64,000 bases of DNA from the IMG/VR virus record IMGVR_UViG_3300048837_000795, positions 1 to 64,000 of that record; one strand, 5' to 3'. The notes below the pieces were generated by a model, which saw only the letters and a program-made list of their open reading frames with translations, searched no databases and had not been told where the DNA came from. Made by a program: the position numbers and the translations under genes. Source of the stretch: a virus. Of the stretch, positions 21,395 to 46,769 are shown in pieces. How positions within the stretch are numbered: the stretch's first letter is position 1; every line of letters begins with the position of its first letter.

Positions 21395-23833
21395 ATGATG
21401 ACCTACGAAGAATATCTAGCAAGCAAAGTCACCAAAACGGAAATATCAGGATTTGAAGTGTCACTAGAGGCGCTCCATCCGATCCTGAAAGGTTGGCAGA
21501 AAGTCATTGTCCAGCATGCGCTCAAGATGGGTAAATACGCGCTGTTGGAAAATACCGGACTGGGTAAGACCTTGCAATATGGCGAATGGGCTAAGCACGT
21601 GGCTGCGCACACCGGTATGAAAGTGCTGATTGTTACCCCGCTTTCCGTGGCTGATCAAACGATACGCGAGCTCGATAAGAAGCTCCAGGTGGCCGCGCGC
21701 TACTGCCGGTCACAGGAAGAGGCCGAGTCGTGCGAAGAGCAGATCATCGTTACCAATTACGACATGCTCAAGGTGTTTGACCCGGAATACTTTTCCGGCC
21801 TGGTCCTGGATGAGTCAAGCATTCTTAAAAGCTACATGGGCAAGCTCAAGCAGTACATCCTGGAAACCTTCGCCAATACGCCCTATAAGCTGGCCTGCAC
21901 CGCTACCGCCGCGCCAAACGATCACATGGAATACGGCAATCATGCCGAATTTATCGATGCGATGAGCTCGACCGATGTTTTGCAGCGCTTTTTCATCAAC
22001 GACACGATGGAGGCCGGCGGCTATCGCTTGCTGGGATGGGCCGACACGACCAAGCCAATGGGGTTTTGGACGTGGCTTTCTTCATGGGCTGCCTGCATTT
22101 CTAAGCCGTCCGATATTCCAGGCTTTACCGATGATGACTTTGTTTTGCCTAACCTGGTAATCCACGAGGAAGTCGTTTCGATCGACCATACCCGCGCCTT
22201 CGATCAAGGGCAGCTCGTGATCTCGGGCAAGCTCAGCGCCACGGGCGTATGGAAGGAAAAGGCCCTTACGCTGGAAGATCGTTGCATCCGCGCGCGTGAG
22301 GTATACGACCGCATCCAGACGCATGAGCCGGTCGTTGTCTGGTGCCAGACGAACGATGAAGCTGATCGACTGGTGCAGCTCTTCCCTGATTTTGTCGAGG
22401 TGCGCGGGGAAGAAAAGCGCGAGGTAAAGCTGGCCAAGCTGCGCGATTTTGGAGACGGCAAATATCCCGGAATTATTACCAAAGCCGAGATCGCCGGCTA
22501 CGGCATGAACTGGCAGCACGCCGGCAATCATATCTTTGTTGGGGTAACGTACTCATTCGAGGATTTTTACCAGTCGATTCGCCGCTCTTACCGCTATATG
22601 CGCGAGGGCGATGTGCATGCCTGGCTGATCTATGCGGAAACCGAGGGCAATGTGCGCAAGGCCCTGGAGATGAAACAAAAAGAGTATGACCGCATGCAAT
22701 CCCGCATGAATGAGGCCATGCGCATTTATGGACTCGACCGGGCAGTAGACCGCAAGCAGGCCAATATTGAGATCGACGAAGATGTGGCCAGCGGGGAGGG
22801 ATGGACGAATTATTTAGGTGACTGCGTTCTGACCGCCCGTAAACATATTGCCGCCGATAGTGTTGACTTCTCTATCTTCTCGCCGCCATTCGCTGAGCTT
22901 TACCGCTACACCGACAAAGTCGCCGATATGGGCAACGTAGCCAATATGGACGAATTCTTTGAGGGGTTTGATTATATGATCCACGAGCTGTACCGGGTGA
23001 TCAAACCGGGCCGGCTGGTCGCTGTGCACTGCAAAGACCTTCCCCTGTACATGAACCGTGACGCGGCCGCCGGGCTGCGCGACTTTCCCGGTGAGATCGT
23101 CAATCATTTCCAGAAATACCAGTACGATCGTGACCATATCCCCAGCGAAGACCCGCAGTACAAAAACCGGCGCTGGATCCTGCACTCAAAGGTCACGATC
23201 TGGAAAGATCCGGTCATCGAAATGCAGCGCACGAAAAACCACGGCCTGTTGTGGAAAAACTTCATGGAGCGCGGAGAGGTCGTGCGCCAGGGCATGGCAG
23301 ATTATCTGTATGTTTTCCGCAAGTGGGTGGATATGGACGAAATGCCAGACAAGCAAATTCAGCGCGTTATGAAAGCGCCTGGCTTTCACGATGGCGAAGA
23401 TGAGCATGTTTTTATCGGCGAAAACCCGCCCTTGCGTTTCGATGGTGACCGTGACTACTCGATCCAGGTATGGCAGAAATACGCTTCGCCGGTCTGGGAT
23501 GATATCCGTCAGACCAATGTGCTCAACGGCCGCATTGCCCGCGAGGACCGCGACCAGAAACATATCTGCCCGCTTCAGCTCGACGTGATCGACCGCGGGA
23601 TCGACCTGTGGACAAACCCCGGCGATCTGGTATATGACCCTTATAACGGGGTTGGGTCCACCACCAGCAGGGCTGTGCAAATGCACCGGCGCGCGGTTGG
23701 GAGTGAGCTCAAGAAAACCTATTGGAAGCTGGGCAACAAACACAATAAACAGGCCGAGCAGGAAGCGCGAAACGTGGACCTCTTTGCCTACGCCGCGTCG
23801 CTGCCCATCGAAGAACAGGCCGCCGCAGATTAG
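21395..23833 (+). CDS. Fusion of SNF2/DEAD-type helicase and DNA methyltransferase, 812 aa
   Basis: The N-terminal half is a superfamily-2 ATPase: ENTGLGKTLQYGEW (Walker A, about 52-60), LDESS (motif II, about 138-142), TATAAP (motif III) and a helicase C domain (VVVWCQTNDEADRLVQLF, FYQSIRRSYRYMREG). From about residue 470 follows a DNA methyltransferase with catalytic SPPF (about 495-498) and AdoMet loop YDPYNGVGSTTSRAV (about 746). SPPF suggests N4-cytosine methylation, or N6-adenine. The fusion resembles type III/ISP-like restriction enzymes without a nuclease. NVDLF near the C terminus is clamp-motif-like. RBS is AGAGG behind motif B. Confidence 0.85.
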   Translation: MMTYEEYLASKVTKTEISGFEVSLEALHPILKGWQKVIVQHALKMGKYALLENTGLGKTLQYGEWAKHVAAHTGMKVLIVTPLSVADQTIRELDKKLQVAARYCRSQEEAESCEEQIIVTNYDMLKVFDPEYFSGLVLDESSILKSYMGKLKQYILETFANTPYKLACTATAAPNDHMEYGNHAEFIDAMSSTDVLQRFFINDTMEAGGYRLLGWADTTKPMGFWTWLSSWAACISKPSDIPGFTDDDFVLPNLVIHEEVVSIDHTRAFDQGQLVISGKLSATGVWKEKALTLEDRCIRAREVYDRIQTHEPVVVWCQTNDEADRLVQLFPDFVEVRGEEKREVKLAKLRDFGDGKYPGIITKAEIAGYGMNWQHAGNHIFVGVTYSFEDFYQSIRRSYRYMREGDVHAWLIYAETEGNVRKALEMKQKEYDRMQSRMNEAMRIYGLDRAVDRKQANIEIDEDVASGEGWTNYLGDCVLTARKHIAADSVDFSIFSPPFAELYRYTDKVADMGNVANMDEFFEGFDYMIHELYRVIKPGRLVAVHCKDLPLYMNRDAAAGLRDFPGEIVNHFQKYQYDRDHIPSEDPQYKNRRWILHSKVTIWKDPVIEMQRTKNHGLLWKNFMERGEVVRQGMADYLYVFRKWVDMDEMPDKQIQRVMKAPGFHDGEDEHVFIGENPPLRFDGDRDYSIQVWQKYASPVWDDIRQTNVLNGRIAREDRDQKHICPLQLDVIDRGIDLWTNPGDLVYDPYNGVGSTTSRAVQMHRRAVGSELKKTYWKLGNKHNKQAEQEARNVDLFAYAASLPIEEQAAAD

Positions 23834-34984: not shown

Positions 34985-36910
34985 TTACTCCCCTTTCACA
35001 AATGGTTTTACTTCAACGGTAACAGCCCATTCTTCGAGCTGCGTAATCCTGTTCTCCTGCCTCGTGTCCGCGCCTTTCAGCGCGTCGCCCATGACCTTCG
35101 TCAGCTCGACCAGACCCCTCACTGCCGACTCTGCCGCGTCCAGTCTTGCTAATATTGCGGTCAGGTCCTGGGGTGGGGGAGGGGTGGCAACGGTCACAGA
35201 AACGGTATTGCTCTTTGCGGAGCGGTTGCCAGCGGCGTCATACGCCTCGACCTGGTACTGATAGGTGCCGGCGGGTTTGTTGAGCAGGGTAAACGTCGGG
35301 CTGGTGGTGTTGTAGGTCTGCACGCCGTTCTCGAACAGGTGATACCCAACCGCGCCACCAGCGCTGTCTGTGGACGGCTGCCAGTTCAAAACGACGGTGC
35401 TGCCGGCTACCTGCGCGGTCAGCCCGGCCGGGGCAGTGGGCGGGGTGGTGTCGGCGGGAGGCGGCTGCGTTGGTTTGCCCAGGGCGGCCGCGAGCTGCGC
35501 AGCAGTGCCTTTGTAGAGATAGAGCGTCGGGCGATAGCTCACAAACTCCCAGCCGTCGCTCGCCCCGATGTGGGCGGGCCGTGTATCAGCAGGCGGGTAT
35601 GATTCGTCAAGCGCGCCAAGCGGAAGCTGCTGGTCGACGATGGTCTCGTGCTGGTGTATCCATGCCAGCGCGCCAGGCGCGTACTGCGCCAGAAACGCGT
35701 GGCTGGTGCGTACATACACTTTTACGCCCGGATGCGCCTTTTCCGCGATTTCTTTCGCCTTGTTGATAAACTCGCGCATGGTGAAATTGAGCCACGCCGC
35801 GTTGCCCGGCTTGCCGCTGTGATCGTTGGGATCGAGCACGGTGATAATATAACCATCAGCATTGCGCGGCTTGCAGATATCCGCGAAGGTCTGCAACGGA
35901 TAGTCCTGGTCAAAGTCGGGCCACATTGCCGGGTCGAGAGGGTACTGGTTTTCGGTGTAGTACGCCATTGAAAACCGGTATTCGATCAATACCTGCTTGC
36001 CTTGCGCGCGTGCCTTCTCCTCCATCGGCTTGAGCACCTGGTTGGGCTGCTCGTAGCCCGCGCCGCCGGCCAAAACGTAGAAGTGGTACCCCGGATTGCC
36101 CCAGCCGGAATCGGTCGGCGTTTTGGCGTAGTAGCCAATCGCATTGTCCTTGTAAAGATTCGCCATCATTTCACCTTCCTTTAGCCATTCAGTGAACTGC
36201 TCTTCCGAGCCAAAGAAAACATCCCAGTCGATGTCTTTGCTGCCGTCCATGCCCAGCTCCAACCCATACGCCGGGGTGCCAGCCTGCCAGAACGTAGCCC
36301 GCTCCCACTGGCCCAGCGTGTTGGGGGTAAAACCCAGCCGCTCGATATAATCGATAAACGCTTCCAGAGTCATGCCTGCCGGCAGCTTTGGCCAGGCCGC
36401 AATCCACAAAGGCATGACCCGCAGCCAGGCAGGCAGCGGCACAAAAACGCCGTTTTCACTGGTCAGGTATTGGATCATCGCCAGGTTCATGTAAGCGCCC
36501 ATGCGTTTCCCGCTGGCTAGCTCGCCGGCGTCTTTGTAAAGCTTCATCTTGGCGAGGCACTGCGCACGCGGGGGCAGGGGCGGCCAGTCTGCGCCAGGCT
36601 TTTCCCAGTCGCCCCAGATCACGGGCATCTCGGATGGATAAGCGCGTTCGACCTCGCCAAATGCGCGGCCCTGGACAGCGTCGGCCGCTGCGCCTATACG
36701 GTAATCCCACCAGCCATATGCGCCGCGCACATAACCATGCACGGCCTGCGCAGTGTAGTTGCGCACAAAGTCGGCGTCAATCGTTGCGGCGTTGGTCAAC
36801 CGGTTGATCACAAAGCGCACGTGCCGCGTTTTGGGTTTCGACCAGTCGATCACCTGCGGGGTGTCGGGATTATCCTGATGGGTAGATACATCAATGCCGT
36901 GTACTCTCAT
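34985..36910 (-). CDS. GH25-type endolysin with extra domains, 641 aa
   Basis: The N-terminal GH25 lysozyme-like domain has GIDVSTHQ at residues 5-12 and the catalytic-type IWGDWEKP. A second TIM-barrel-like domain covers about residues 245-490. A fibronectin type III domain follows (PTAPAGLTAQVAGSTVVLNW, YQVEAYDAAGNRS). A C-terminal coiled coil ends the protein. It should cut peptidoglycan glycan strands at lysis or, given the FN3 and coiled coil, act as a virion-associated lysin. It is the last large late gene. Upstream TTATCAAAATCAACTAGG is a weak relative of motif A. Confidence 0.8.
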   Translation of the reverse strand: MRVHGIDVSTHQDNPDTPQVIDWSKPKTRHVRFVINRLTNAATIDADFVRNYTAQAVHGYVRGAYGWWDYRIGAAADAVQGRAFGEVERAYPSEMPVIWGDWEKPGADWPPLPPRAQCLAKMKLYKDAGELASGKRMGAYMNLAMIQYLTSENGVFVPLPAWLRVMPLWIAAWPKLPAGMTLEAFIDYIERLGFTPNTLGQWERATFWQAGTPAYGLELGMDGSKDIDWDVFFGSEEQFTEWLKEGEMMANLYKDNAIGYYAKTPTDSGWGNPGYHFYVLAGGAGYEQPNQVLKPMEEKARAQGKQVLIEYRFSMAYYTENQYPLDPAMWPDFDQDYPLQTFADICKPRNADGYIITVLDPNDHSGKPGNAAWLNFTMREFINKAKEIAEKAHPGVKVYVRTSHAFLAQYAPGALAWIHQHETIVDQQLPLGALDESYPPADTRPAHIGASDGWEFVSYRPTLYLYKGTAAQLAAALGKPTQPPPADTTPPTAPAGLTAQVAGSTVVLNWQPSTDSAGGAVGYHLFENGVQTYNTTSPTFTLLNKPAGTYQYQVEAYDAAGNRSAKSNTVSVTVATPPPPQDLTAILARLDAAESAVRGLVELTKVMGDALKGADTRQENRITQLEEWAVTVEVKPFVKGE

Positions 36911-36971: not shown

Positions 36972-37442
36972 TCACGCACCCGCGCTCTTGCTGTGGGAGT
37001 AAATTCCCCAAATCCAAACTGCTAGCCGTTGCCATTTCTCCATTTCGGCAGCCACATGCACATGATCCATGCTGTTCTGCTGCTGGTTGCCAAGCGCGAG
37101 ATTTTCCAGACGGTTATCTTTCTTGTCTCCATTCAGGTGACGCACAACCTCACGAGTCATGAGAGGCCGCCCGATATGTCGGGCCATCACTAAACGATGC
37201 TCAAGCACATAATGCAGTTTGGTATTCGCTAGTATCCGATCATTATCGGAAAGAGCATTAACCGGAACCGCGTTATAACCCTGAACGTCATGCGTTCTGT
37301 AACCCCGGTTTATATTTGCGGTATGCGTCATTCCAGACAAAACACCGGCGCATTTTCGGCTGCACGCTGTTCGGTTGGCCGGGCTTTTGTAAAAAGCCCT
37401 GGTAATTCCTTTTCCGCAAACAACACAATTTCTTGTTTCCAT
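36972..37442 (-). CDS. HNH homing endonuclease, 156 aa
   Basis: The HNH core is YVLEHRLVMARHIGRPL then EVVRHLNGDKKDNRLENLAL. The N terminus has two CxxC-type pairs (CVVCGKG and CSRKCAG). ATG at 37442 follows GGGGAGCGGTG. Inserted between tail and lysin genes with its own motif C box, as free-standing homing endonucleases are. Confidence 0.85.
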   Translation of the reverse strand: METRNCVVCGKGITRAFYKSPANRTACSRKCAGVLSGMTHTANINRGYRTHDVQGYNAVPVNALSDNDRILANTKLHYVLEHRLVMARHIGRPLMTREVVRHLNGDKKDNRLENLALGNQQQNSMDHVHVAAEMEKWQRLAVWIWGIYSHSKSAGA

Positions 37443-37482
37443 CACCGCTCCCCTTTTTAGAACACCTATTCGGTCTCACTGT

Positions 37483-41958: not shown

Positions 41959-44343
41959 TTATGCCTTTACTGCCCTGGCCACGACCTGCTCGATGCGTGC
42001 CTCAAGCACGGAGAAATCGAGGGCGCTGTTGATGTTATTGCCGCCAAAGTTGAAGGCGTTGTTGATGGTGGTCGAGCGCGTCATCGCCGGGGTGGAAGGC
42101 ATGGAGCTGAATGAGCCTGCACTGCCGCGCACACCCGCGCCCTGACTGCCCGCGCCTGGGGATTTGGCATTGTGTACCACCACGCCGTCTACCAGGTAGG
42201 TATGGTCGGGATGGTCGACTTCGATGTTATAGATATCAAACTCGCCCGGGTAGGCTTCTACAAACGCGACAAAGGCCGGCGTTTTGGAAACCAGCATCTC
42301 GCCGGGCGCAAGATCGCATGCTTCGACCCAGCCGCGGGCAAATGTTTTAAATCTGTGATTGGGTGAGCAGTGATACTGCCGTCCGTCATCGATATACACG
42401 CTGACCAGGTCGCTGCGCACCGAATGGATGGTCTTTGCCACCAGCGCCGCGACTTGCTCGCCGTCATCGCGCATCAACAAAACTTTGTCGCCCACGCGCA
42501 GATCAGCAATCATGGTCATGCCGCCCGGCACATTGACCGGGGTTGACGCCACAAAGCAGGTGCCAGGCGGGTCAGATGCCGGGCCTGAGCGCGCGCCGTT
42601 GATCAGCCGCACCAAATTGTTAAACCACTTGGTCAGGTCCTGGAGTTTGCCCGACGCCCACTCGAAGGCCCGCCCTAAAACGTCGCGGATGGTTTTGGCG
42701 GCGTCCTCGATCAGCGGGCCAAATGTCTGCGAGAGCCAGTCGCCAAACCCGGTCAGCAGCGGGAACAGGGTCTCGCTGATAAACTTCCACACTTCGGTCA
42801 GCGCGGGTAACAGCGTCTCGGTCCAGACCTTACCCAATTCCTCCAGCGCCAGGCCAAACACCGCGCCGAGGAAATCGGTAAACGACTGGAAAAACGGGAA
42901 CAGCACCGTGGTCATCCATGTCCACACACGCTGGATTGCCGGCAGCAGCGTATCTTCCCAGAAGGCCCTGAGTGACTCGATAGCCAGCGGAATATTGGTC
43001 GCCAGCCAGTCCCACATGGTTTGGAAGAGCGGGAAGAGGTTGGCCTGGATCCACTCCCACACCGACATAATCGCCGGCAGTAATGTCTCTTCCCAGAAGC
43101 CTTTCAAAATCTCGATGGCCGCCGGCACGTTGACCGCCAGCCAGTTCCACAGCTGCTGTAAGGCCGGCCTTACCGTACCCTCCCAGAACTGGGTCAGGGC
43201 GTCGCGCATGCCCAAAAAGTTGTTTTCCCAGGCGTAGGCCAGCGCGGCCACGACCGCGGCGACCAGCAGCAGCACGCCGATCAGCGGCGCGGCAGCGGTG
43301 ACCATCGCTACGATCGCCGGGATGGCCGCGGCGATGGTGGTATAGGCCCATACTGCCACAGCCACGGCAATGGCCGCCAGCACCCCCACAATAATAGGCT
43401 TATTGGCCATCAGCCAGTTGAATCCGGCCTGGAGGATATTAAAGGCGATGGGCATGGCGGTAATAATCACGTTGGCAATGCGCGAGATAAGGCCGGCGAT
43501 TTGCGGCAATATCTCGCGCACCTTCGGCAGCGCTTTGCGGGCCAGCTCCATAAAACGTTTGGCCAGGTCCATCACTGCCGGCATAAGTTCTTTGCCAAGC
43601 TGCACAAACAGGCCCTGCCCGGCCATCTTCAAAAACTCAAGCTGTTTCTGCAGCTCGATCGACCCGTCAACAGTATCCCCGCTCAGCGACAGGCCCAATT
43701 CTTTGGCCATCGCGTCAGCCTCGGCAAAGCCGTCGGTGGTCAGCGCGCCTAACGTGTCGGTCAAATCTTTGCCCGACTTGCCAAACAGCTCAACCATCAG
43801 CTTGGTCTTTTCCAGCCCGTCCGGCATGAGCGCCAGTTTATCGGCCACGGCGGTGATGATATCGGTCGACGGTAGTATGTTGCCGTTCGCGTCGCGGAAA
43901 GCAATGCCCAGCTTATCCATTACCGCCCCGGTTGCGCCCAGCTCGCCCTTGCTGTCGACCAGCCCGCGGGTAAGGAAGGCCATCTGCCCGGTAATGCCCT
44001 CGACATTGCCGCCCACGCGCTGGATTGCCACGGCCAGCGCCGACGACTCTTCGGCCGACGTGCCCAGCACATCGCCAATGCTGTCGACCGTGCCGGCCCA
44101 GCCCATCATGGCCGGGATCGCCGCGAGCGCCGCGCCGGCCAGCGTGCCGACCGCCGCGGCGGCAGCGCCTAACGCCCCCATCACCACCGCCCCACCCACG
44201 CGGGACAAACCTTCGGTCATACGCGCGCCCGCGCTCTCAGTCTCATCCTTGCCGGTCTTTGTCGCGGCTAAGTATTCCCGCATACCAGCCAGGAAGTCCG
44301 CGTTTTTGAAAATAGCCTCAAGGCCGATCTGCTCTAAACCCAT
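41959..44343 (-). CDS. Tail tape measure protein with internal Hint domain, 794 aa
   Basis: The N-terminal third is Ala/Gly-rich helical (LSRVGGAVVMGALGAAAAAV). Central hydrophobic helices (IIVGVLAAIAVAVAVWAYTT, LIGVLLLVAAVVAALAYAW) are typical of tape measures. Trp-rich repeats (TLLPAIQRVWTWMTTVLFPF and relatives) follow. From Cys596 to Asn725 lies a Hint/intein-like domain. A short Ser/Asn-rich tail ends the protein. It sets tail length and aids DNA ejection. Start follows AAAGGACGGTAATC. Confidence 0.85.
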   Translation of the reverse strand: MGLEQIGLEAIFKNADFLAGMREYLAATKTGKDETESAGARMTEGLSRVGGAVVMGALGAAAAAVGTLAGAALAAIPAMMGWAGTVDSIGDVLGTSAEESSALAVAIQRVGGNVEGITGQMAFLTRGLVDSKGELGATGAVMDKLGIAFRDANGNILPSTDIITAVADKLALMPDGLEKTKLMVELFGKSGKDLTDTLGALTTDGFAEADAMAKELGLSLSGDTVDGSIELQKQLEFLKMAGQGLFVQLGKELMPAVMDLAKRFMELARKALPKVREILPQIAGLISRIANVIITAMPIAFNILQAGFNWLMANKPIIVGVLAAIAVAVAVWAYTTIAAAIPAIVAMVTAAAPLIGVLLLVAAVVAALAYAWENNFLGMRDALTQFWEGTVRPALQQLWNWLAVNVPAAIEILKGFWEETLLPAIMSVWEWIQANLFPLFQTMWDWLATNIPLAIESLRAFWEDTLLPAIQRVWTWMTTVLFPFFQSFTDFLGAVFGLALEELGKVWTETLLPALTEVWKFISETLFPLLTGFGDWLSQTFGPLIEDAAKTIRDVLGRAFEWASGKLQDLTKWFNNLVRLINGARSGPASDPPGTCFVASTPVNVPGGMTMIADLRVGDKVLLMRDDGEQVAALVAKTIHSVRSDLVSVYIDDGRQYHCSPNHRFKTFARGWVEACDLAPGEMLVSKTPAFVAFVEAYPGEFDIYNIEVDHPDHTYLVDGVVVHNAKSPGAGSQGAGVRGSAGSFSSMPSTPAMTRSTTINNAFNFGGNNINSALDFSVLEARIEQVVARAVKA
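42169..42558 (-). other. Hint (intein-like / BIL) domain inside the tape measure protein
   Basis: 130 residues. They begin with CFVASTPVNVPGGM (N1 Cys), carry HCSPNHRF (TxxH-like block B), and end YLVDGVVVHN (His-Asn terminus). The residue after Asn is Ala, not Ser, Thr or Cys, so normal splicing is unlikely. Bacterial intein-like domains of this type cleave or splice weakly. No homing endonuclease is inserted. Confidence 0.75.
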
Positions 44344-45287: not shown

Positions 45288-46769
45288 TTAGTTTTCGTTG
45301 ATCTTGAGCAGCAGCCCGGTGCCGCCGTTGGCCTCGCCAACCGCGTAGCAGCTGTTTTCCGTCAGCGCCTTGACCGCGTTCAGCCCGCTGTTGAGCGGGG
45401 TGGTCAGCGCTAACCAGTTAGCCCCACCGTCAATGGTGCGCAGCACGGTGCCGACCGGAGCCGCGGTGTTGGAGGCCATAAACCCAACGAAGTCATTGAC
45501 GTAATCGATATCGCGCACCTGTCCGATGCCCGAGCCTGTCCAACCAGTGATGCCGACCCAGGTCGTGCCGAAATCGTTGGACTGGTAGAGCAGGCCTGTC
45601 GCGGTGCCGACCTGCACGCGCCGGTCGTTGAAGACAAAGACGCAGTTGAGGCCAGGTGTACCGGTCACTACCGCGCCGGCGGTCCAGGTCTCGCCGCCGT
45701 CGCGGGTCACCGCGGTCACGCCAGAAGCTGCCACGGCCACGCCGTATTTTTCGTCGGCAAAATGCACGTGGCTGTATGCGCCGGCAGTGATCACGCCGCT
45801 TTCAACCGCGCGCCAGGTCTCGCCGCCGTCAGTCGATTTGTAGATATAACCAGCCTTGCCGGCCAGCAAAATCATGTCACGCGATAAGGCAAACAGGCAG
45901 CCGCCTGCCGAAGCGCCGTGGCCAGCCGCCGCGCCGCCAATCGATTTCAGCGTCCAGGATGCCCCGGCGTTGTCCGAGTATGCGACCTGACCCTGACCGC
46001 CCGCCGGGCCTTCCTTACCGGCTAAATATCGCCGGCCTGTTTTGCCAATCGGGAAGGCGGTGATGGCCATCGTGTTGATCCCTGCCCCAAACGGGTCCGC
46101 AGCGCCGGCGGCCCAGGTCGCACCGTCCGAGGTGAACAGAATATTGCCGGTGGCGGGTCCTGCCGCGCTGTCAGCCGCGATAACAGCCACGTCGCCAGGA
46201 TCGACCGCCTGGCCGCAGTCGCCCAAACACTGCCCGGCCGCGTCGGCCCAGATATCATTCAGCGACTGGGTTTCGGACAGCGCCACGCGCCCCACCGAAA
46301 CCTCCACCGCCTCGATCAGCGGAGGCCAGGCCTGCACGCTCATGGCGTGGGTAGCGTCGTTGGCCTCATTGTGATGCACGCGGCCTGCGTAGGTGATCGA
46401 GTCGATGTTGATGTGATGCAGCACCTGCGCCCGCTCGTAGTTGAGCGGGTTGCTTTTATTGCTGCAGGTCGACAGCATGATGTACAGCGCGCCGTTGGAG
46501 CAGCGCGCCTTTTCGAGATAGTCGCGGGTTTTCTTGCTCATGCCGGTAATGGTGGTGGTCACCGGCTCAGGCGGGGCTTTGCGCTGTCCGATCACGTCCC
46601 AGCCAGAGCGGTCGGCGCGAAAAGCTTGATTGATTTCAATTTCCCCCTGGGGGGCCTCAATATCATCGACGTCGTGGCAGCCGAGCCATTTGAGCTCAGT
46701 TCCCGGCCCATCGGGCTGGAAGAAAACTGACCCGTCGCCGGAATTGTATACATAATCACCAGTAGGCAT
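45288..46769 (-). CDS. Major tail tube protein fused to a six-bladed Asp-box beta-propeller, 493 aa
   Basis: The N-terminal 180 residues sit at the tail tube position and have tube-like features (KWLGCHDVDDIEAPQGEIEI, VTTTITGMSKKTRDYLEKAR). After it come six Asp boxes (S/T-x-D-x-G-x-T-W type) near residues 213, 265, 312, 355, 397 and 445, such as KSTDGGETWRAV and TRDGGETWTAG. This is a BNR/sialidase or Ycf48-type propeller. No sialidase active-site set is evident, so a binding role is likelier. If every tube subunit carries it, the whole tail is decorated. Confidence 0.75.
   Translation of the reverse strand: MPTGDYVYNSGDGSVFFQPDGPGTELKWLGCHDVDDIEAPQGEIEINQAFRADRSGWDVIGQRKAPPEPVTTTITGMSKKTRDYLEKARCSNGALYIMLSTCSNKSNPLNYERAQVLHHINIDSITYAGRVHHNEANDATHAMSVQAWPPLIEAVEVSVGRVALSETQSLNDIWADAAGQCLGDCGQAVDPGDVAVIAADSAAGPATGNILFTSDGATWAAGAADPFGAGINTMAITAFPIGKTGRRYLAGKEGPAGGQGQVAYSDNAGASWTLKSIGGAAAGHGASAGGCLFALSRDMILLAGKAGYIYKSTDGGETWRAVESGVITAGAYSHVHFADEKYGVAVAASGVTAVTRDGGETWTAGAVVTGTPGLNCVFVFNDRRVQVGTATGLLYQSNDFGTTWVGITGWTGSGIGQVRDIDYVNDFVGFMASNTAAPVGTVLRTIDGGANWLALTTPLNSGLNAVKALTENSCYAVGEANGGTGLLLKINEN

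What the first reader, a model, noticed from the sequence alone, without database searches (positions are those of the whole stretch)
42169..42558. Hint/BIL-like domain in the tape measure protein with Ala at the +1 position
The domain keeps Cys1, HxxF-type block B and terminal His-Asn but is followed by Ala. It may self-cleave the tape measure, releasing its 69-residue C terminus or N part during assembly or ejection.
Basis: partly seen in the sequence, partly recalled or inferred. Interest (0 to 1): 0.75.

Follow-up and report, generated by a model that had tools for sequence, protein, structure and literature searches.

The report
Self-processing domain in phage tape measure
The protein that sets the length of this phage's tail carries a complete intein-like self-processing domain just before its C-terminal anchor, and it belongs to a broad set of such domains in phage virion proteins that nearly always carry a lysine one or two residues after the cut site, suggesting an unusual, testable way for phages to cut or re-join their tail proteins.

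Summary
Residues 596-725 of the tape measure protein (TMP; 42169-42558, minus strand) form a complete Hint domain: Cys596, Ser660-x-x-His663, His714, His724-Asn725, followed by Ala726-Lys727. AlphaFold2 gives pLDDT 89. [quoted passage not shown] A relative, L005 (78% identical capsid), has the same TMP without the domain. Removing the 130 residues leaves a 54-residue linker against 53 in L005, so the domain is a clean insertion before the conserved C-terminal anchor. +1 Ala does not single this domain out. In IMG/VR, Hint domains without a +1 Cys/Ser/Thr carry Lys at +1 or +2 in 24 of 29 independent cases (0/38 for +1 Cys/Thr inteins; 3/38 for bacterial BIL/PT-HINT). Where typed, the hosts are tail proteins, including another TMP (L024). 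The window's HN-AK follows this rule. BIL2 is reported to splice onto a lysine side chain, a precedent. Best reading: a BIL-type domain that excises itself from the TMP, probably by amine ligation, with cleavage of the 69-residue C terminus as the alternative. Activity is inferred, not shown.

The parts
41959..44343 (-). Tail tape measure protein gene, 794 aa, containing the Hint domain
   Evidence: ORF; PHROG tape measure hits up to 8.1e-22, PF10145 1.1e-5 below cut-off; 50% identity over 560 columns to the TMP of L005
42169..42558 (-). Hint (BIL-type) domain, residues 596-725, 130 aa, no homing endonuclease
   Evidence: Pfam, PDB sequence hits, AF2 pLDDT 89.2, structural Z 20.3 to 2LWY
42556..42558 (-). 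Cys596 codon: Cys1, nucleophile for the N-S acyl shift
   Evidence: sequence; invariant in 39 aligned phage Hint domains although not imposed by the search pattern
42355..42366 (-). Block B S660-P-N-H663 (TxxH-type) with the catalytic His
   Evidence: His invariant in 39 aligned phage Hint domains; numbering
42169..42174 (-). His724-Asn725: block G, Asn cyclisation site
   Evidence: sequence; aligned with block G of inteins/BIL
42163..42168 (-). Ala726 (+1) and Lys727 (+2): start of the C-extein; Lys at +1/+2 is the recurring feature of non-nucleophile phage Hint domains
41962..42168 (-). C-extein, 69 aa: flexible linker plus conserved TMP C terminus
41980..42090 (-). Conserved TMP C-terminal segment (residues 752-788, NNAFNFGGNNINSALDF...), likely hub anchor by analogy with T5 and 80alpha
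   Evidence: 47% identity to the C terminus of the L005 TMP, E 1e-8; analogy from PMC10038345
42559..44343 (-). N-extein: tape measure body (residues 1-595), ending in a Gly/Pro/Ser linker (SGPASDPPGT)

Best explanation
A complete BIL-type Hint domain has been inserted into the linker between the helical body of the tape measure and its conserved C-terminal anchor. SHOWN by sequence and model: fold, Cys1, block-B Ser-x-x-His, His-Asn end, non-nucleophilic +1 with Lys at +2, and a clean insertion relative to a close homologue. INFERRED: the domain is active and removes itself from the TMP. Cys596 takes the Thr595 acyl group as a thioester, Asn725 cyclises and frees the C-terminal piece, and an amine (the alpha-amine of Ala726 as in type A BILs, or the epsilon-amine of Lys727 as reported for BIL2) takes over the acyl group, re-joining body (595 aa) and anchor (69 aa) into a 664-residue tape of normal geometry. 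Failure of the last step gives the cleaved pair. Either way a globular domain is cleared from a protein that must fit inside the tail tube, and a body/anchor break would mimic the C-terminal TMP cleavage known in lambda and T5.
For: Fold and active site. Insertion in a length-conserved linker (54 against 53 residues after removal) of a Hint-less homologue. Lys at +1/+2 in 24/29 independent non-nucleophile viral Hint domains, against 0/38 canonical phage inteins and 3/38 bacterial BIL/PT-HINT (Fisher 1e-13 and 2e-10); confined to +1/+2 and at background at +3 to +12; seen outside the search pattern too (L013 HN-KTPP, L266 HN-IKQQ, second L058 HN-VKPVV). Chemistry precedents: type A BIL aminolysis (PMC4031507) and BIL2 isopeptide formation (PMC8616854). 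TMP C-terminal processing is known in lambda and T5.
Against: No activity data. Type A BILs mostly give cleavage in the test tube, and the Magnetospirillum BIL needed a +1 Cys to splice (PMC4031507). The Hint tree is poorly resolved and does not place the window domain with the main Lys clades; its highest identity (38%) is to a +1 Cys phage intein, so it could be a decayed intein. Only one phage of this lineage carries the insertion in the collections searched. The Lys rule has exceptions (L017, L062, L130, second Hint of L118).
Confidence: 0.5

Rival explanations
1. Cleavage only: N-S shift plus hydrolysis and Asn cyclisation cut the TMP into body, Hint and a 69-residue C terminus, which stays as a hub plug or is lost, as in the lambda gpH and T5 pb2 processing.
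For: No +1 nucleophile; cleavage dominates in type A BILs (PMC4031507); T5 TMP is cut and its C-terminal 35 residues remain as a trimer in the hub (PMC10038345); lambda H is cleaved during tail assembly (PMC3224144).
Against: Does not explain why Lys is held at +1/+2 across divergent phage Hint domains, even where the C-extein is only 2-4 residues. The linker on both sides keeps the length of the uncut homologue.
Confidence: 0.3
2. A decayed class 1 intein (parasite) that lost its endonuclease and +1 nucleophile and is now inert or barely active; the phage tolerates it because it sits in a flexible linker.
For: Highest identity is to a +1 Cys phage intein (38%); absent from the relative L005; found in one phage only.
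Against: All catalytic residues are intact with no frameshift or decay. Lys at +2 matches the phage rule. Unlike the +1 Cys/Thr phage inteins sampled, which lie mainly in terminases and helicases, it sits in a non-conserved linker, and a folded 130-aa domain in a tail lumen should be costly.
Confidence: 0.13
3. The domain transfers the TMP body to an amine on another tail protein or on a host molecule (intermolecular isopeptide, hedgehog/BUBL-like) instead of re-joining its own C terminus.
For: BIL2 conjugates its N-extein to lysines of other proteins (PMC8616854); several phage Hint domains end the protein with a 2-5 residue C-extein, where re-joining would be pointless.
Against: In this TMP the C-extein is a conserved functional segment, so intramolecular re-joining is the simpler reading.
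Confidence: 0.07

Closest known systems
Bacterial intein-like (BIL) domains type A, e.g. Clostridium thermocellum BIL4 (PDB 2LWY)
   Same: Hint fold (Z 20.3, 1.6 A over 130 residues, 28% identity), Cys1, block-B His, C-terminal His-Asn, no +1 Cys/Ser/Thr, no endonuclease
   Different: The window domain sits in a phage TMP and has Lys at +2; in the bacterial BIL/PT-HINT sample +2 is mostly Cys (38/88) or Asn, with Lys at +1/+2 in only 3/38
Tetrahymena BUBL1 BIL2 domain (PDB 6Y75, 6TMM)
   Same: Second-best structural match (Z 20.1); best sequence match of the phage Hint profile (9.3e-23); bacterial-intein-like, lacking the +1 nucleophile (the latter from my own knowledge)
   Different: Eukaryotic ubiquitin locus; its isopeptide product is reported (PMC8616854), whereas for the phage domains it is only inferred; C-extein residues of BIL2 not compared here
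Class 1 mini-inteins (gp41-1, Ssp DnaB M86) and the atypical VidaL intein
   Same: Fold (Z 17-20) and catalytic blocks A, B, F, G
   Different: No +1 Cys/Ser/Thr; inserted in a variable linker of a structural protein rather than a conserved enzyme site
Pretoxin HINT (PF07591) of polymorphic toxins
   Same: Best Hint-type Pfam match (9.5e-5, below cut-off)
   Different: No toxin domain follows; the C-extein is the TMP C terminus
C-terminal processing of tape measure proteins (lambda gpH, T5 pb2)
   Same: Break between tape body and C-terminal segment
   Different: No Hint domain is described for those cleavages in the papers read; here the enzyme would be built in

Membership tests
BIL domain, type A | Hint fold | tested here: met
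   AF2 pLDDT 89.2; Z 20.3 to 2LWY
BIL domain, type A | Cys1 and block-B His | tested here: met
   Cys596, S660-P-N-H663; invariant in alignment A2
BIL domain, type A | C-terminal His-Asn | tested here: met
   His724-Asn725
BIL domain, type A | No nucleophile at +1 | tested here: met
   Ala726
BIL domain, type A | Groups with bacterial BIL domains in a tree | tested here: inconclusive
   Tree poorly resolved; window domain in no supported clade
BIL domain, type A | Autocleavage or aminolysis splicing | not testable with these tools
   needs a wet-lab assay
Canonical class 1 intein | Cys, Ser or Thr at +1 | tested here: not met
   Ala726
Canonical class 1 intein | Insertion at a conserved site of a conserved protein, present/absent between homologues | tested here: inconclusive
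   Clean presence/absence against L005, but the site is a variable linker
Pretoxin HINT (PF07591) | Score above the curated cut-off | tested here: not met
   23.1 bits against 27.7
Pretoxin HINT (PF07591) | Toxin domain after the Hint | tested here: not met
   The C-extein is homologous to a TMP C terminus
Phage non-nucleophile Hint set (defined here) | Lys at +1 or +2 after His-Asn | tested here: met
   HN-A-K; rule holds in 24/29 independent cases
Isopeptide-forming BIL (BIL2-like) | Isopeptide product on a lysine epsilon-amine | not testable with these tools
   reported for BIL2 in PMC8616854; not assayed here

The most novel reading that the evidence does not exclude
Phage virion proteins (tape measures, gpJ-like tail tips, fibres) carry a widespread, undescribed class of Hint domains whose conserved +1/+2 lysine serves as the acyl acceptor, so that they splice or conjugate through an isopeptide bond instead of a Cys/Ser/Thr ester; in this phage the class acts inside the tape measure during tail assembly.
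Probability: 0.35. Interest if true: 0.88.

Novelty: new variant of a known kind. Interest (0 to 1): 0.68.

Why it matters
If the domain is active, it is a built-in processing enzyme of a tape measure, and it makes a long-standing question (how and why TMP C termini are cut during siphophage tail assembly) testable by single point mutations. The lysine rule points to a set of natural Hint domains with an amine acceptor in phage virions, a possible parallel to the ATP-free, ligase-free isopeptide formation reported for BIL2, and a possible source of protein-ligation tools that need no cysteine acceptor.

Tried and rejected
Close relatives of the TMP or of the Hint in IMG/VR by peptide patterns: none; alignment search in genome contigs: none; TMP C-terminal pattern: only the L005 contig. 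The 95% capsid relative L004 ends before the TMP. PF07591 in L005 and in the window's own record gave no match; the negative in the window's record, where the domain is present but below cut-off, shows that this search is not sensitive enough to prove absence in L005, where the ORF reading and tblastn decide instead. Considered and dropped: that +1 Ala itself is unusual (it is also the commonest +1 residue in the bacterial BIL sample); that the domain carries a homing endonuclease (130 aa, contiguous); that Lys is a compositional effect (background at +3 to +12; 0 of 20,000 within-sequence shuffles reach the observed count; that set includes one HN-SK case chosen for its Lys); that the Lys rule comes from near-copies (it holds at 70, 50, 40 and 35% dereplication). 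Tree placement of the window domain is left open. Literature: no paper found in the library describes Hint domains in tape measures or a lysine rule; bioRxiv and most subscription journals are not held.

Full report
CHECK OF THE OBSERVATION. The ORF 41959-44343 (-) encodes 794 aa and is a tape measure protein by PHROG (best 8.1e-22) and weakly by Pfam (PF10145, 1.1e-5), lying among capsid, tail and tail-tip genes. Residues 596-725 match PT-HINT (9.5e-5), Hint_2 and Intein_splicing in Pfam, all just below their curated cut-offs, and solved inteins/BIL by sequence. The codon positions in the finding are exact: Cys596, His724-Asn725, then Ala726-Lys727 and a 69-residue C terminus. An alignment with 38 other phage Hint domains (A2) keeps Cys1 and the block-B His in every row; neither was imposed by the search pattern, whereas HTY, G and HN were. 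AlphaFold2 with A2 gives pLDDT 89.2 and pTM 0.82, all beta. The top structural matches are CthBIL4 2LWY (Z 20.3, 1.6 A over 130 residues) and Tetrahymena BUBL1 BIL2 6Y75 (Z 20.1), then mini-inteins at 18-20 and hedgehog at 17; rows within 1 Z unit are tied. A profile search of PDB sequences gives the same two families at the top.

THE INSERTION. The capsid protein finds two relatives in IMG/VR, of which L005 (78% capsid identity) covers the TMP. Its TMP is 50% identical over 560 aligned columns, has no Hint in its ORF (no tblastn match to the Hint above background), and shares the C-terminal segment NNxxxNFGGxNINxxxDF (47% over 38 aa, E 1e-8). Measured between the conserved helix and that C-terminal segment, the linker is 184 residues in the window TMP, 54 after removal of the Hint, and 53 in L005. 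The domain is therefore a clean 130-residue insertion into a linker of otherwise fixed length, next to the part of the TMP that in T5 and phage 80alpha sits as a trimer in the tail hub (PMC10038345).

A WIDER CLASS. In the pooled set the residue after HN was Lys, Cys, Thr, Ala, Ser, Ile and others. Two groups separate cleanly. Where +1 is Cys or Thr, Lys never follows at +1/+2 (0/47), and the ten host proteins tested are mainly terminases and helicases, with a QueE-like enzyme and some ambiguous ones: ordinary inteins. Where +1 is not Cys/Ser/Thr, Lys sits at +1 or +2 in 32/39, or 24/29 after dereplication at 50% identity, against 0/38 for +1 Cys/Thr and 3/38 for a bacterial BIL/PT-HINT sample; Fisher p 1e-13 and 2e-10, and the rule holds at 70, 40 and 35% as well. 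At +3 to +12 Lys is at background. Further cases outside the pattern: L013 HN-KTPP, L266 HN-IKQQ and a second L058 domain HN-VKPVV; against the rule, the second L118 domain HN-DGTW and L002 HN-LC. In bacterial BIL/PT-HINT domains the +2 residue is instead Cys (38/88) or Asn.

HOST PROTEINS. Among the non-nucleophile set, the proteins that PHROG can type are mostly tail or virion proteins: gpJ-like tail tip (L073, 1e-132; L018, L022, L059, L087), tail proteins and fibres (L023, L123, L118, L090), and a tape measure by gene order (L024: major tail proteins, tail assembly chaperone, then the 1521-aa Hint protein), with a likely second one (L021). Many others match no family or only families of unknown function, and a few carry only weak hits caused by the Hint itself. 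The domains are often flanked by Gly- or Pro-rich stretches, and several stand at the very C terminus with only 2-5 residues after HN, nearly always including Lys (GK, NK, SKD, KIA, ATKL). In those, re-joining a C-extein would make no sense as such, so the Lys probably serves the chemistry or folding of the domain.

MECHANISM. Established: type A BILs have His-Asn, lack the +1 nucleophile, form the Cys1 thioester, cyclise Asn and can ligate the flanks by the freed amine, although cleavage dominates (PMC4031507). BIL2 is reported to splice with formation of a lysine epsilon-amine isopeptide bond and to conjugate its N-extein to other proteins (PMC8616854). Inference: the window domain follows the same path, with Ala726 alpha-amine or Lys727 epsilon-amine as acceptor, giving a 664-residue TMP without the globular domain; incomplete ligation gives a TMP body and a 69-residue anchor, as in the processed TMPs of T5 and lambda. 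The alternative roles of Lys (charge stabilisation of the C-terminal cut, or a structural clasp) are not excluded.

LIMITS. No activity, no virion data, one phage of this lineage. A tree of 66 domains is poorly resolved: it needs 4 label changes for the non-nucleophile phage set and leaves the window domain outside supported clades, with its highest identity (38%) to a +1 Cys phage intein. So the lysine feature may be ancestral in part and convergent in part.

VERDICT. A real, intact, probably active BIL-type Hint domain in a tape measure; a new variant of a known kind.

Noticed in passing
window 45288-46769 (-): Protein upstream of the TMP (tail-tube-like position and N terminus) carries C-terminal BNR/YCF48-type propeller repeats; L005 has a homologous protein of the same length. 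Unusual tail decoration.
   Followed up: no
window 34985-36910 (-): GH25 lysozyme-like domain (3e-7) fused to PKD/Fn3-like repeats in the distal part of the tail gene block.
   Followed up: no
window 21395-23833 (+): 812-aa protein matching DNA helicase and DNA methyltransferase PHROGs, apparently a fusion.
   Followed up: no
window 36972-37445 (-): Free-standing HNH_3 endonuclease gene (5.5e-11) in the tail module.
   Followed up: no
L145-L262 (bacterial BIL/PT-HINT sample): Bacterial BIL/PT-HINT domains are followed at +2 by Cys in 38 of 88 and by Asn in many others, whatever +1 is; a possible +2 nucleophile not mentioned in the review passages read.
   Followed up: partly
L114 and L080: Two tandem Hint domains, both HN-K, in one phage protein, Pro-rich in L114.
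   Followed up: no
L265:2017-3459 (Erwinia phage pEa_SNUABM_30 gp107): Collagen-like virion structural protein of a named, isolated jumbo phage ends in a Hint with HN-TDIVAKAEKK; a possible laboratory model for virion Hint domains.
   Followed up: partly
L012 and L013: Acidic protein with GTDG repeats carrying a Hint (HN-KTPP), encoded beside genes that look like virion structural genes.
   Followed up: partly
L021:6159-6764 (+): GIY-YIG type homing endonuclease gene just downstream of the Hint-bearing TMP-like gene.
   Followed up: no
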